From Alkalinema sp. FACHB-956 (GTDB lineage Bacteria > Cyanobacteriota > Cyanobacteriia > Leptolyngbyales > Leptolyngbyaceae): a DNA stretch of 60,668 bases. The notes beneath the pieces were generated by a model. That model did not search any database and had not been told where the DNA came from. It saw only the letters and a list, made by a program, of their open reading frames with translations. Below, in pieces: positions 10,785-17,868 of the stretch (positions are counted from its first letter, which is position 1; every line of letters starts with the position of its first letter). The DNA lies in assembly GCF_014697025.1 (NCBI RefSeq), contig NZ_JACJRC010000030.1:1-60668 (forward strand), given 5' to 3'. Both the position numbers and the translations under genes were made by a program.

Positions 10785-11327
10785 CTAAGTCGATCGCCAT
10801 TTCACTGAGCAGCCAATCGGAGCCGTTGAGGTCGGCACGATCGCTTCATCCGCCAAAATTCGCGCGATCGCATCCCGCAGGTGGTTTTGGGTCACGGCGG
10901 CTGGATTTTGGGCATTGTCGTCCACGGCACCGCTGTAGCAGAGAATGCCTTGCTGGTTCAGCAGAAACACATGGGGTGTCTTTTCCGCGCCAAAGGTGTG
11001 GGCTACATCCTGGGTTTCATCCCGCAGGTAGGGAAAATTGAGGCCATTGGCTTCGACGAACGGCTGCATTTGATCGAAGGCATCTTCAGGAAATTGTTTG
11101 CCATCGTTGGGATTGATGCCGATGAGCGTAAATCCCTGGCCTCCGAAGTCCGCTTGAATCTGCTTCAACCGATCCAAGTAAAACTTGACATAGGGGCAGT
11201 GATTGCACATGAAAACAACCCCGATCGCCTTGTATTGTTCCAAATACCGCGCTAGGTGATGCACAGATCCATCTGCACCGGGCAACTCAAAGTCAGGCGC
11301 GTATCCGCCGATCGCTGTTCCTTCCAT
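10785..11327 (-). CDS. Thioredoxin-like/AhpC-TSA family protein
   Basis: 180 residues, cytoplasmic (no signal peptide). The fold starts with APDFELPGADGSVHHLARY, and the active site is FMCNHCPYVKFYLDRLK with a CNHC motif at C41/C44. FTLIGINPNDGKQFPEDAFDQMQPF and FPYLRDETQDVAHTFGAEKTPHVFLLNQQGILCYSGAVDD (with the cis-Pro TP) follow. This matches the thioredoxin family proteins annotated as peroxiredoxin-like; the CNHC pair favours a thiol-disulfide oxidoreductase. Electron partner unknown. It stands alone, with divergent spacing to the hydrolase gene. Confidence 0.85.
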   Translation of the reverse strand: MEGTAIGGYAPDFELPGADGSVHHLARYLEQYKAIGVVFMCNHCPYVKFYLDRLKQIQADFGGQGFTLIGINPNDGKQFPEDAFDQMQPFVEANGLNFPYLRDETQDVAHTFGAEKTPHVFLLNQQGILCYSGAVDDNAQNPAAVTQNHLRDAIARILADEAIVPTSTAPIGCSVKWRST

Positions 11328-12527: not shown

Positions 12528-12977
12528 CTACCATTTTTTGTAGGGTAGGAATTTCCCATTCATGGTCACCTTCACCCGATCGCCCTTGGGATCTTCCACC
12601 TTCTCGATATCCAACGTGAAATCGATCGCGCTCATAATGCCATCCCCAAATTTTTCCTGGATGACATCCTTCATGGGCATGCCATACACCTGCATGATTT
12701 CGTAGAAGCGGTAGATCAGCGGATCGGTGGGAACGATCGGCCCCAGTCCCTTCGTGGGGCAGGCGGTTAATTCAGCAACCAACGTTTGCGGCAAATCCAA
12801 CGCCGTCAACAACTTGCTGGCTTCGTCTTCCGAGGCCGCCGCTTGACCGTAGAACAAAGCAGCAATCCAAACTTCATCCCGATCGAGTAAGGATTCCAGG
12901 TCAGCAAACGTCAAGCCCTTTTGCTTCTTGGCGGCAAGCAGCGTTTGCGTCAATGCGGGAATTTCAACGCTAGACAT
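12528..12977 (-). CDS. cynS: Cyanate hydratase (cyanase)
   Basis: 149 residues. It converts cyanate plus bicarbonate to ammonia and CO2 and acts as a decamer in the cytoplasm. The three catalytic residues are present with the correct spacing: Arg90 and Glu93 in [13 protein letters not shown], and Ser116 in [10 protein letters not shown]. The C-terminal domain ends [13 protein letters not shown], matching the family exactly. I start at the ATG at 12977 ([10 protein letters not shown]); a longer frame upstream adds 11 residues without homology. In cyanobacteria cynS often belongs to nitrogen control, but I see no clear NtcA box, and the upstream region is filled with tandem repeats. Confidence 0.95.
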
Positions 12978-12984
12978 CCTGAAC

Positions 12985-13147
12985 TCCTGATTCACAAACC
13001 TATAATTCACAACACTGGATTCGCAATCCTAGATTCACAACCCTGGATTCAGGACTACGCCATCCATTGCAAGCAACAATACCTACTGCAAGCAACAATA
13101 CCTATTGCAAGCAGACCTATTGCAAGCAGACCTATTGCAAGCAGCAA
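12985..13147. repeat. Tandem repeats upstream of cynS
   Basis: Two families: GATTCACAAnCCTRGATT-like units (about 12,990-13,050) and TGCAAGCAACAATACCTAT / TTGCAAGCAGACCTA units (about 13,067-13,147; the latter perfect over two copies). They occupy the place where the cynS promoter is expected. Confidence 0.8.
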
Positions 13148-13303: not shown

Positions 13304-13555
13304 CTACAGTTCACATCCATGAATCACAACCCGATCGACCGTAATTAAATCATCCAGCCGAATCACCCTACCGGAGTCGAGGCGAAGAAACTCAACCTTA
13401 TTCTGGCTGTAAATATCAACCAGCTTAGTCTGGATCACAAGGGATTCCCCAGCTTCATTGCGATAGACCACCTCACAGCTCCGGCGACGCAAAATCAGTT
13501 CCACCAAGCGATCGTAAATGTCGCAGTCGATCGGGTGATAGGGTCGATCGTGCAT
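13304..13555 (-). CDS. Rof-like (Rho-binding antiterminator family) small protein
   Basis: 83 residues. YHPIDCDIYDRLVELIL at the N-terminus corresponds to the start of E. coli Rof/YaeO (YxPIxCDxYDxLE), and the following LVDIYSQNKVEFLRLDSGRVIRLDDLITV matches the strand pattern of the Sm-like Rof fold (xxRKNVEYLxV...LRLDKITS). In E. coli Rof binds Rho and blocks termination. Most cyanobacteria lack Rho as far as is known, so the role here must differ or be unknown. The gene lies 43 bases downstream of vipp1 on the same strand, which suggests one operon. I leave the symbol empty because function is not transferable. Confidence 0.7.
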   Translation of the reverse strand: MHDRPYHPIDCDIYDRLVELILRRRSCEVVYRNEAGESLVIQTKLVDIYSQNKVEFLRLDSGRVIRLDDLITVDRVVIHGCEL

Positions 13556-13598
13556 CCCAAAATTCCCCCTCGCCTAAGCCAGCACCTAAATCCACCGC

Positions 13599-14384
13599 CT
13601 AAATGCCCCGAATCTCACGGCGGAGTTTTTCCAACTCGGGATCGGAAGAGCTGCTGGCAGCACTGGAATTTCCCACCGTTGCACTACTGGAACCGCCAGA
13701 ACCGCCGATCTGTCCCGTTGGGGTTGTTCCCAGTAACTGAGTTTTCAACGCCACGAGTTCTTGATCAATCTCACTGGCTTCCCCCAGCGCTTGGAATTTT
13801 TTCTCCAGCTGATCGGTACTCAGTTCCGCCGAAACTTCCGCTTGGGCTTCCAGTTGCAGCACCTTTTCTTCCATCCGTTCAAAGGCTTGGATCGCATTGC
13901 TGGTGCCAATACCGCCCAACATATCGTTCAACTGTTGCGAGGTCTTCGCAGCACGGGCACGGGCAATATACATATCCTTCTTGGTCTTCGCATCAATTAG
14001 TTTGCTTTCCAATTGCTGCAAATTCTGCTTGAGTTGCACAACAACGCTGCCCTGTTGTTGCAGTTGACCCGCCATCGCCTCTGCGGTTTCCTGGTAGGAC
14101 TTGCGTCGGGTCAAAGCTTCGCGGGCGAGGGCTTCATCGCCTTTTTGTAAGGCAAGCTGCGCTCGACGGTACCATTCATTGCTCTGGAGTTCCGCGTGGG
14201 TCACTTGGCGCTCTGTCCGCTTTTGGGTCGCGATCGCCTGGGCTACGGCCTGCCGCATCCGCACCAGGTCATCCTGCATATCCGCAACTGCCTGTTCCAG
14301 GATTTTCTCAGGGTCTTCGTTTTTTTCAATCCAATCGTTGACATTTGCCCGGACTAAACGCCAGACCCGATCGACTAAGCCCAT
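13599..14384 (-). CDS. vipp1: Vipp1/IM30, PspA-family membrane-remodelling protein
   Basis: 261 residues. Vipp1 is an ESCRT-III-type protein that forms rings and rods on membranes and is needed for thylakoid integrity. The N-terminal amphipathic helix GLVDRVWRLVRANVNDWI is followed by the PspA core coiled coil (NEDPEKILEQAVADMQDDLVRMRQAV and EEALAREAL-type helices; residues about 20-215). A Gly/Ser linker (about 220-247) leads to the extra C-terminal helix DPELEKLRREIRGI. That helix distinguishes Vipp1 from PspA. The start at 14384 is fixed by GAGGAG five bases upstream; the frame extends 18 codons further without support. Confidence 0.9.
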   Translation of the reverse strand: MGLVDRVWRLVRANVNDWIEKNEDPEKILEQAVADMQDDLVRMRQAVAQAIATQKRTERQVTHAELQSNEWYRRAQLALQKGDEALAREALTRRKSYQETAEAMAGQLQQQGSVVVQLKQNLQQLESKLIDAKTKKDMYIARARAAKTSQQLNDMLGGIGTSNAIQAFERMEEKVLQLEAQAEVSAELSTDQLEKKFQALGEASEIDQELVALKTQLLGTTPTGQIGGSGGSSSATVGNSSAASSSSDPELEKLRREIRGI

Positions 14385-16938: not shown

Positions 16939-17430
16939 ATGAGTAATTCCACGCAAAACCCTGAGCAAACGACCATGGCTATGGCCTTCGCCCAGTTCGC
17001 GAAAAAAAAAGCCCTTCCCGCGTTAGTTCAGAATGGGATCAACCTTTTTTCACAGTACGCAACCCCTATGAATCTAGGCGATCCCCGGATTTCGACCTGT
17101 CGTCACTGCAAGCATTATCAAATCGAAGGAAGGCGTGGTGGTTATTGTCACCAGCTGAGTTCTCCGGTTCAAGGCAGTTGGAATGCCTGTACTTTGGCGA
17201 TCCCAAGCTTCGAGCCACTGGTCTCCCCTGCGGTCGTTGTCGAAACGGTCATTGCAGAAGCAATTTTGGCTGAATCTGCAGTGAATGAATCTGTGCTAGA
17301 TGAGTTAATTGCTGGGACGGGCGCTGAAAGCACGTTGGAAGGCCGATCGTTCAGCCAACCGTTGCATGTACTGGAGGACAGCTGGATAACCACTCAGATC
17401 GAGTTTCAGCATCATGGGGATGTAGCTTAA
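16939..17430 (+). CDS. Cys-motif protein of unknown function
   Basis: 163 residues, soluble. The only clear motif is TCRHCKHYQIEGRRGGYCHQ followed by WNACTLA (residues about 53-90). Its four cysteines (CxxC, C, C) suggest a metal or Fe-S site. The remaining ~70 C-terminal residues are Ala/Val/Glu-rich and low in complexity. The last 126 bases overlap the convergent GST gene on the other strand, so this tail may be read-through sequence rather than a conserved domain. The Cys region resembles a small family seen in cyanobacteria with no assigned role. Confidence 0.6.
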   Translation: MSNSTQNPEQTTMAMAFAQFAKKKALPALVQNGINLFSQYATPMNLGDPRISTCRHCKHYQIEGRRGGYCHQLSSPVQGSWNACTLAIPSFEPLVSPAVVVETVIAEAILAESAVNESVLDELIAGTGAESTLEGRSFSQPLHVLEDSWITTQIEFQHHGDVA

Positions 17431-17868
17431 CAGCGATCCCACTGCCACATCACTGACAGTAAACTGTTCCCCTTGGATATACGGTTGTTTCTCTAATAGT
17501 GAATTGAGTCCCCCCATTAAGCGAGGCATCTCTCTTTCCCGATTGGCTTCAATAAAAATTCCCGTTCCAAGGGTGGAGTTGGCAAATAAAATCCATTGAT
17601 TCGCGATTGACTTTTCTTCCACAGAAGCGAAGCCGCCGCCATATTTTTCTGCAAGGTAGAGCAAAATTGCTCCGGATTCCCACAGCTTAAACGCTCCATC
17701 CTCAATGGCTGGAACTTTGCCAAAGGGGTTGATGGCTAGAAAAGCTGGCTCCTGGTGAGCTCCCGCCGCCATATCTAGAAGAACAAACTCGTAGGGAATC
17801 CCCAGTTCTTCTAAATACCAATGAATAATTGTGGCGCGACTGCGAGCACCACCATAGAGTTTCAGCAT
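17305..17868 (-). CDS. Glutathione S-transferase family protein
   Basis: 187 residues. The N-terminal thioredoxin-like domain is MLKLYGGARSRATIIHWYLEELGIPYEFVLLD; the conserved ESGAILLYLAEKYG is the Glu-Ser glutathione-binding motif (residues about 64-77); and the C-terminal helical domain has FTVSDVAVGSLLSYIPMM. The putative catalytic position after LYGGARSR is Ser/Arg-like rather than Tyr, so the transferase substrate and activity are unassigned. The length is normal for the group. The 3' end overlaps the convergent gene at 16939-17430 by 126 bases. Confidence 0.85.
   Translation of the reverse strand: MLKLYGGARSRATIIHWYLEELGIPYEFVLLDMAAGAHQEPAFLAINPFGKVPAIEDGAFKLWESGAILLYLAEKYGGGFASVEEKSIANQWILFANSTLGTGIFIEANREREMPRLMGGLNSLLEKQPYIQGEQFTVSDVAVGSLLSYIPMMLKLDLSGYPAVLQYMQRLAERSAFQRAFSARPSN

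What the first reader, a model, noticed from the sequence alone, without database searches (positions are those of the whole stretch)
13304..14384. Rof-like protein in a vipp1 operon, in a lineage expected to lack Rho
The 83-residue protein matches the Rof/YaeO pattern (PIxCDxYDxL...). Rof is known as an inhibitor of Rho. Rho is missing from most cyanobacteria, so a different target is implied. It is 43 bases behind vipp1, which protects membranes under stress.
Basis: partly seen in the sequence, partly recalled or inferred. Interest (0 to 1): 0.6.

Follow-up and report, generated by a model that had tools for sequence, protein, structure and literature searches.

The report
Rof-like protein in Rho-less cyanobacteria
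A small protein related to Rof, which in E. coli switches off the transcription terminator Rho, is found in cyanobacteria that have no Rho; there it often sits beside, and is sometimes fused to, enzymes that remove peroxides or other reactive chemicals, so it probably has another partner and another job.

Summary
An 83-residue ORF at 13555-13304 (-) lies 43 bases behind vipp1. It is a distant Rof homologue: NCBIfam Rof E 5e-5, E. coli Rof E 2e-7 with a 63-sequence profile, model matching Rho-bound Rof at Z 10.2, rmsd 1.4 over 72 residues. No rho was found in this genome or in 37 other cyanobacterial carriers tested; 8 of 8 carriers tested outside the class have it. [quoted passage not shown]

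The vipp1 link is local: no other carrier examined shows it, and relatives keep a SPOR-vipp1 pair without rof. Thiol/peroxide genes (OsmC, Tpx, thioredoxin-fold, FAD reductase) lie near 18 of 41 cyanobacterial copies and in 0 of 36 control regions (classes chosen afterwards, loci partly related); 23 of 41 lack them. In four genomes the Rof domain is fused in frame to OsmC. The window's nearest relative lies in an osmC/cyanase/nitrile-hydratase cluster, and the window's rof precedes cyanase.

Best reading: a Rof-fold accessory of thiol/electrophile-stress cassettes with a non-Rho partner. The partner is inferred.

The parts
13304..13555 (-). rof-like gene, 83 aa, Sm-like fold
   Evidence: no PF07073 match above cut-off
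13599..14384 (-). vipp1 (PspA/IM30 family), 261 aa, 43 bases upstream of rof; linkage found in no other carrier examined
   Evidence: PF04012 E 1.6e-59. A second PspA/Vipp1 paralogue lies at G000:C8:20047-20829
12528..12977 (-). cynS (cyanase), 326 bases downstream of rof on the same strand
   Evidence: TIGR00673 E 6.2e-66; the G401 copy of rof also lies in a cluster with cynS, 84% identical
12989..13144 (.). short tandem repeats (periods 14/28, 19 and 15) between cynS and rof
10785..11327 (-). AhpC/TSA (redoxin) protein about 2 kb downstream of rof; context only, not counted in the enrichment
   Evidence: PF00578 E 2.2e-18
17305..17868 (-). glutathione S-transferase-like gene about 4 kb upstream; a 63% identical gene lies near rof in L135

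Best explanation
The gene encodes a single-domain Sm-like protein homologous to Rof. In Rho-less cyanobacteria the family often travels as an accessory of gene cassettes that deal with peroxides and other thiol-reactive or toxic small molecules (OsmC-type peroxidases, thiol peroxidase, HTHP heme protein, globin, GST/SDR, cyanate and nitrile breakdown). It most likely works as Rof does, as a small cap that uses helix alpha1 and the beta3-beta4 loop to cover a surface of a partner protein, but the partner is not Rho. The fusion points to the OsmC-type protein itself or to something that controls the cassette. In the window the copy sits before cyanase and, as a lineage-specific accident, behind vipp1. 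Shown: homology, fold (as a model), no rho found in the carriers tested, no vipp1 linkage elsewhere, cassette association in a minority to half of the loci, OsmC fusion. Inferred: the capping action, the identity of the partner, and a role under thiol/electrophile stress.
For: Profile and fold match to Rof. No rho in 38 of 38 cyanobacterial carriers tested: G000, G185, G005, G170, 34 more. Thiol/peroxide genes near 18 of 41 copies against 0 of 36 control regions; HTHP near 9 of 41, the query's own locus included, against 0 of 36. Four in-frame OsmC-Rof fusions and four genomes with the two genes about 1 kb apart, in 63 genomes. Nearest relative of the window copy (51%) stands in rof-osmC-acyl-CoA dehydrogenase-ABC transporter-cynS-TetR-DsbA-...-nitrile hydratase. 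A Nostoc plasmid copy lies next to globin, with MarR, tpx and thioredoxin genes; a Comamonas plasmid copy lies behind msrB, a mercuric reductase and grxC. Purifying selection.
Against: 23 of 41 cyanobacterial copies have none of the thiol/peroxide classes within 6 kb, and the window copy is one of them by that count. Classes were chosen after seeing the neighbours, and several loci are close relatives, so the p value overstates. Outside the class only 1 of 50 loci was hit by the same queries. No interaction with OsmC or any other protein is shown. Neighbourhood can reflect shared mobile islands rather than shared function.
Confidence: 0.45

Rival explanations
1. It keeps a Rof-like role in gene expression: under stress it covers the RNA-binding domain (OB, S1 or cold-shock type) of another factor, for instance an unknown terminator that replaces Rho in cyanobacteria, RNase E or ribosomal protein S1, so that its stress operon is read through or its mRNA is spared.
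For: Rof covers the RNA-binding N-terminal domain of Rho (PMC11018626 passages). C10, D14 and mostly E17 of the Rho-binding helix stay conserved in the cyanobacterial set although no rho is there: 40, 41 and 39 of 41. Intrinsic terminators do not account for most transcript ends in Synechococcus elongatus, and the absence of Rho suggests other termination mechanisms (PMC13289151, abstract passage).
Against: No transcription or RNA gene stood out among the recurrent neighbours. S. elongatus was not shown to carry a copy. Nothing here identifies a target.
Confidence: 0.25
2. It is a thiol-based sensor: its two conserved cysteines (window C11 and C27) react with peroxide, cyanate or other electrophiles and change its contacts, so that it reports stress to the cassette.
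For: The first cysteine is present in 40 of 41 (the missing one is a truncated sequence) and the second in 39 of 41 cyanobacterial copies; neighbours handle thiol-reactive compounds.
Against: The first cysteine is also conserved in Rof-like proteins elsewhere (49 of 49) and in E. coli Rof, where it contacts Rho, so it need not be redox-active; the second is present in 37 of 49 others. The distance between them in the model was not measured.
Confidence: 0.15
3. It is a horizontally acquired passenger that has no important role in cyanobacteria.
For: Patchy distribution: 5 of 386 genomes of the phylum, 17 of 42 in the window's family; plasmid copies; varied contexts.
Against: dN/dS 0.03-0.32 in 11 of 12 close pairs; conserved positions across 41 copies; fusion kept in four genomes.
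Confidence: 0.1
4. It works with Vipp1 in membrane stress.
For: 43-base gap on the same strand in the window, which allows co-transcription.
Against: Linked in no other carrier examined; relatives have SPOR-vipp1 without rof.
Confidence: 0.05

Closest known systems
Rof/YaeO of Pseudomonadota (PF07073; NF008636)
   Same: Sequence profile match over most of the length (E about 2e-7); best VIA-align match is Rof in the Rho complex (Z 10.2, rmsd 1.4, 72 residues); the window keeps the residues equivalent to C10, Y13, D14 and E50.
   Different: No rho in the genome; V instead of E at 17; below the curated cut-offs of both family models. In most other cyanobacterial copies Y13 is H and E50 is D.
Hfq and other Sm-like proteins
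   Same: Same fold class, Z up to 7.9 over about 57 residues.
   Different: Lower Z than Rof; 7-14% identity in the aligned rows. Whether this protein forms a ring or binds RNA was not tested.
WYL domains of regulators (CapW, BrxR, DriD, PafBC)
   Same: Model residues 1-75 align at Z 7.3-8.4; BrxR is Foldseek's top hit, E 1.7e-3, just ahead of Rof at 1.9e-3.
   Different: WYL domains are parts of larger regulators; rmsd about 3 A against 1.4 for Rof; this protein is a lone domain, or fused to OsmC in relatives.
OsmC-family peroxidases (PF02566)
   Same: Natural fusion partner in four genomes.
   Different: The window protein is the Rof domain alone, and no osmC gene was seen beside it.

Membership tests
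Rof (Rho-off) inhibitors | Sequence match to the curated Rof models at their cut-offs | tested here: not met
   PF07073 13.4 bits against 27.6; NF008636 23.4 against 117
Rof (Rho-off) inhibitors | Sm-like alpha/beta fold of Rof | tested here: met
   AlphaFold model pLDDT 84.3; Rof best by VIA-align, Z 10.2; by Foldseek Rof is second and no hit reaches E 0.001
Rof (Rho-off) inhibitors | Rho present in the same genome | tested here: not met
   for the window; 37 other cyanobacterial carriers
Rof (Rho-off) inhibitors | Rho-contact residues of helix alpha1 (C10, Y13, D14, E17) and E50 | tested here: inconclusive
   Window: C, Y, D, V, E at these positions, so four of five kept; most other cyanobacterial copies have H at 13 and D at 50
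Rof (Rho-off) inhibitors | Inhibits Rho-dependent termination | not testable with these tools
   needs an assay
Hfq/Sm RNA chaperones | Ring-forming, RNA-binding Sm protein | not testable with these tools
   only a monomer model was made
WYL-domain proteins | WYL-type fold | tested here: inconclusive
   Z 7.3-8.4 at about 3 A rmsd, below Rof; no WYL family was reported by Pfam at E 10 or better
Accessory of thiol-stress cassettes (proposed here) | Recurrent neighbours or fusion with thiol-peroxide genes | tested here: inconclusive
   Across the family: 18 of 41 loci and four fusions. Window copy: not among the 18; it has cynS 326 bases away and an AhpC/TSA gene about 2 kb away

The most novel reading that the evidence does not exclude
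A redox- or electrophile-linked Rof that, in lineages which lack Rho, restrains the unknown factor that ends transcription in its place, so that detoxification operons are read through during stress. The Rof fold would then be broader than Rho inhibition, and its partner would be a handle for finding the cyanobacterial terminator.
Probability: 0.1. Interest if true: 0.9.

Novelty: new variant of a known kind. Interest (0 to 1): 0.6.

Why it matters
Two 2024 structural papers on Rof state that it is restricted to Pseudomonadota (PMC11018626) and present only in organisms that encode rho (PMC11018607). A homologous family in 38 cyanobacterial genomes in which no rho was found, under purifying selection and fused to an OsmC-type protein in four genomes, is hard to square with both. 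It means that the Rof scaffold has a partner other than Rho, which could be found by pull-down in a cultured strain such as Leptolyngbya sp. PCC 6406.

Tried and rejected
Vipp1 coupling: rejected as a general rule; one search counts a different contig as 'not linked', which in broken assemblies is not proof. A hidden Rho: none found; in 386 phylum genomes TIGR00767 was found in 12, all 12 labelled outside the window's class. Five weak profile hits in genomes of family code f31 (E 2e-4 to 9e-3) were set aside as unconvincing: partial coverage, one with internal stops. The first genome-collection scan with the window protein found no relative; the second, with alignment A2, found 117 and kept 80.

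The same detoxification queries hit 1 of 50 loci from outside the class (L113, FAD-reductase query); the queries were cyanobacterial, so this is weak evidence of absence. The Y13H and E50D shift falls mainly in one part of the tree, so I do not count it as many independent events. The comparison set of 49 is dominated by Hymenobacter and its relatives, and rho was tested in 8 of its genomes only, although the script labels it rho+. The tree has few columns and mostly unresolved forks: the one-group support for all cyanobacterial copies is 0, while 38 of 40 group at SH-aLRT 87 and window plus L138 at 94. Promoter- and terminator-like sites around vipp1-rof-cynS were no more than shuffles give (3 against 1.6, sd 1.4; 2 against 2.4, sd 1.4). 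Paper searches: Rof/Rho/antiterminator/YaeO, cyanobacteria with Rho, 'Rho-binding antiterminator' with cyanobacteria and alone, Rof with OsmC (the cyanobacteri term could not match as a whole word), Sm-like/Rof/Hymenobacter, PF07073. None of the listings shows a title or abstract start on Rof in cyanobacteria; subscription papers and preprints were not searchable.

Rows dropped before counts: L122, L123, L126, L129, L130, L133, L134 and L136 (second fetches of named loci) and L140 (fragment) from the 41-locus cyanobacterial set; L084 (truncated) from the tree; L091 (my reading met a stop after 27 residues) from the comparison set. Alignment A3 took 62 of 78 usable locus proteins plus the window, to thin Hymenobacter. 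In the 41 loci some flanks are cut short by contig ends.

Full report
What is there. An 83-residue ORF runs from 13555 to 13304 on the minus strand, 43 bases behind vipp1 (stop at 13599) and 326 bases before cynS (12977-12528), all on one strand. The DNA just before its ATG holds a purine-rich, ribosome-binding-like stretch (sequence).

Is it Rof? Single-sequence evidence is modest: NF008636 E 5.1e-5, far below its curated cut-off, PF07073 E 0.088 and below cut-off, E. coli Rof chains E 0.003. With relatives it is firm. A profile of 63 sequences finds E. coli Rof at E about 2e-7, and 42 of the 63 members match PF07073 at E 0.01 or better; the window protein is not one of them. The AlphaFold model (pLDDT 84.3, pTM 0.69) matches Rho-bound Rof best by VIA-align (Z 10.2, rmsd 1.4, 72 residues); CapW and BrxR WYL domains (Z 8.4, 8.2) and Hfq (7.9) follow. 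By Foldseek alone no hit reaches E 0.001: BrxR is first (1.7e-3) and Rof second (1.9e-3).

Rho. TIGR00767 gives one 22.8-bit match in the genome (cut-off 509), inside an ORF that I recognise as the F1-ATPase beta subunit; PF07497 gives none. Of Rof-like carriers, one search tested 34 cyanobacterial genomes (0 with rho at E 1e-30) and 7 others (7 with rho); one further handle, L071, was not held. In one search G185, G005 and G170 have only weak hits far below the cut-off (at most 31.6 bits), and G038, in the phylum but outside the class, has rho (589 bits). With the window genome this makes 38 cyanobacterial carriers without a rho found, and 8 of 8 others with it. Among 386 genomes of the phylum 12 have rho, all 12 labelled 'same phylum', none 'same class' or 'same family'. 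[quoted passage not shown] The four members from the window's class that I scanned one by one score below the Pfam cut-off, while the G038 one scores above it; low scores against PF07073 probably explain the difference.

Distribution. Single-sequence search: 5 of 386 phylum genomes, the window's included. Profile: 10 of 386 at E 0.01, the same five plus five weak ones. Window's family: 17 of 42 genomes, one of them a fragment at a contig end. The named collection gave 117 relatives, 80 kept: 31 cyanobacterial loci; the other 49 mostly Hymenobacter and other Bacteroidota, with Leptospiraceae, a planctomycete (Rhodopirellula), Ignavibacteriae, Methylocaldum and one record titled Williamsia. Five plasmid records carry one: Nostoc, Comamonas, Hymenobacter and two Persicobacter; three are annotated there only as hypothetical proteins, one has no gene there, one record has no annotation. 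On the tree the window copy pairs with the G401 copy (SH-aLRT 94).

The vipp1 link. Window Vipp1 has no match in 99 fetched carrier stretches (L042-L140, up to about 6 kb on each side, some sites twice). In 16 other family carriers no rof lies within 10 kb of a vipp1/pspA hit: 12 have them on other contigs, 4 at 111 kb to 1.8 Mb. In 29 relatives' vipp1 loci rof is absent, while 26 keep the SPOR-protein neighbour. The link appears specific to this lineage.

What it travels with. In 41 cyanobacterial loci, thiol/peroxide genes (OsmC, Tpx, thioredoxin-fold, FAD reductase) occur within 6 kb in 18, and in 0 of 36 regions of 12.24 kb from nine carrier genomes (Fisher p 1.2e-6; classes chosen after inspection, own-locus queries left out, loci partly related). 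SDR 14 against 2, MarR 9 against 0, globin 8 against 0, GST 6 against 1; NIPSNAP, NMO, cupin, TetR, LLM, acyl-CoA dehydrogenase, FmdA and VOC are 2 to 4 of 41 against 0 and not significant alone. HTHP is near 9 of 41, the query's own locus included, against 0 of 36. The other 23 of 41 loci, the window among them, have no thiol/peroxide hit. Pfam confirms OsmC, Redoxin, HTHP, globin, NMO, NIPSNAP, ChrR cupin and formamidase among representatives; the thioredoxin-fold representative had no Pfam hit, so that label is mine. The FAD-reductase, MarR, SDR, GST, VOC and LLM labels of neighbours, and TetR outside G401, are mine from sequence. At least five arrangements recur: HTHP-rof-thioredoxin-fold-Tpx-MarR, often with a globin; OsmC with SDR, TetR and LLM genes; SDR-NIPSNAP-rof with an FAD reductase or NMO; SDR-rof-VOC-GST; and nitrile/formamide/cyanate clusters.

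Fusion. A search with the Leptolyngbya sp. PCC 6406 protein in 63 genomes of its family found four in-frame OsmC-Rof proteins of 208-216 residues (G440, G482, G490, G471) and four genomes with the two genes about 1 kb apart (G438, G439, G479, G480). Pfam sees OsmC in the PCC 6406 protein (E 4.9e-18).

The window copy. Its nearest relative (51% identity) is in G401, in the order rof-osmC-acyl-CoA dehydrogenase-ABC transporter (ATPase above the nitrate-transporter cut-off)-cynS-TetR-DsbA-...-nitrile hydratase beta and alpha; that cynS is 84% identical to the window's. So a rof-cynS neighbourhood, unlike rof-vipp1, has a parallel elsewhere, though in one genome only.

Residues. E. coli Rof contacts Rho through I8, C10, Y13, D14, E17, K47, N48 and E50 among others; Y13A and D14A abolish binding (PMC11018626 passages). 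In the 41 cyanobacterial copies C10 (40), D14 (41) and E17 (39) stay, while Y13 (13; H in 26) and E50 (10; D in 31) shift; in the 49 others Y13 is 47 and E50 is 49. Y13 and E50 both touch Rho R88. The window copy keeps Y and E but has V at 17. This fits a changed partner surface but does not prove it: two of the 49 others also have H at 13, and one of these, G038, has rho, as does Methylocaldum, the other.

Selection. dN/dS is 0.03-0.32 in 11 of 12 close pairs, so the gene is maintained.

Mechanism. I favour a Rof-type protein cap with a non-Rho partner in thiol/electrophile-stress cassettes (0.45). Rivals are a gene-expression role on another RNA factor (0.25), a thiol sensor (0.15), a passenger (0.1) and Vipp1 (0.05). 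[quoted passage not shown] the word Rof does not occur in that paper's main text.

Noticed in passing
L069 5587-6237; L213-L216: In-frame OsmC-Rof fusion proteins of 208-216 residues in four cyanobacterial genomes, one of them Leptolyngbya sp. PCC 6406.
   Followed up: yes
L138 and L143 (G401): A cluster of rof, osmC, acyl-CoA dehydrogenase, ABC transporter, cynS, TetR, DsbA-like and nitrile hydratase genes in a cyanobacterium.
   Followed up: partly
L226 5001-5237 (Comamonas aquatica plasmid pB1A): A Rof-like reading frame with no annotated gene, behind msrB, a mercuric reductase, an oxidoreductase and grxC.
   Followed up: no
L225 6001-6243 (Nostoc sp. C057 plasmid p057_A): A Rof-like frame covered by two small hypothetical genes on opposite strands, between a globin and a hypothetical gene, with MarR, tpx and thioredoxin genes nearby.
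   Followed up: no
L099, L103, L106, L113, L118, just upstream of the main copy: Hymenobacter relatives carry a second, more diverged Rof-like ORF (about 80 aa) in tandem.
   Followed up: no
L050 5753-5992 and homologues: HTHP (hexameric tyrosine-coordinated heme protein, PF11534) encoded directly upstream of rof in several cyanobacteria.
   Followed up: partly
window 12989-13144: Short tandem repeats (periods 14/28, 19, 15) fill part of the gap between cynS and rof.
   Followed up: no
G000:C8:20047-20829: A second Vipp1/PspA paralogue (54% identity) in the window's genome; most of the 42 family genomes show two hits.
   Followed up: no
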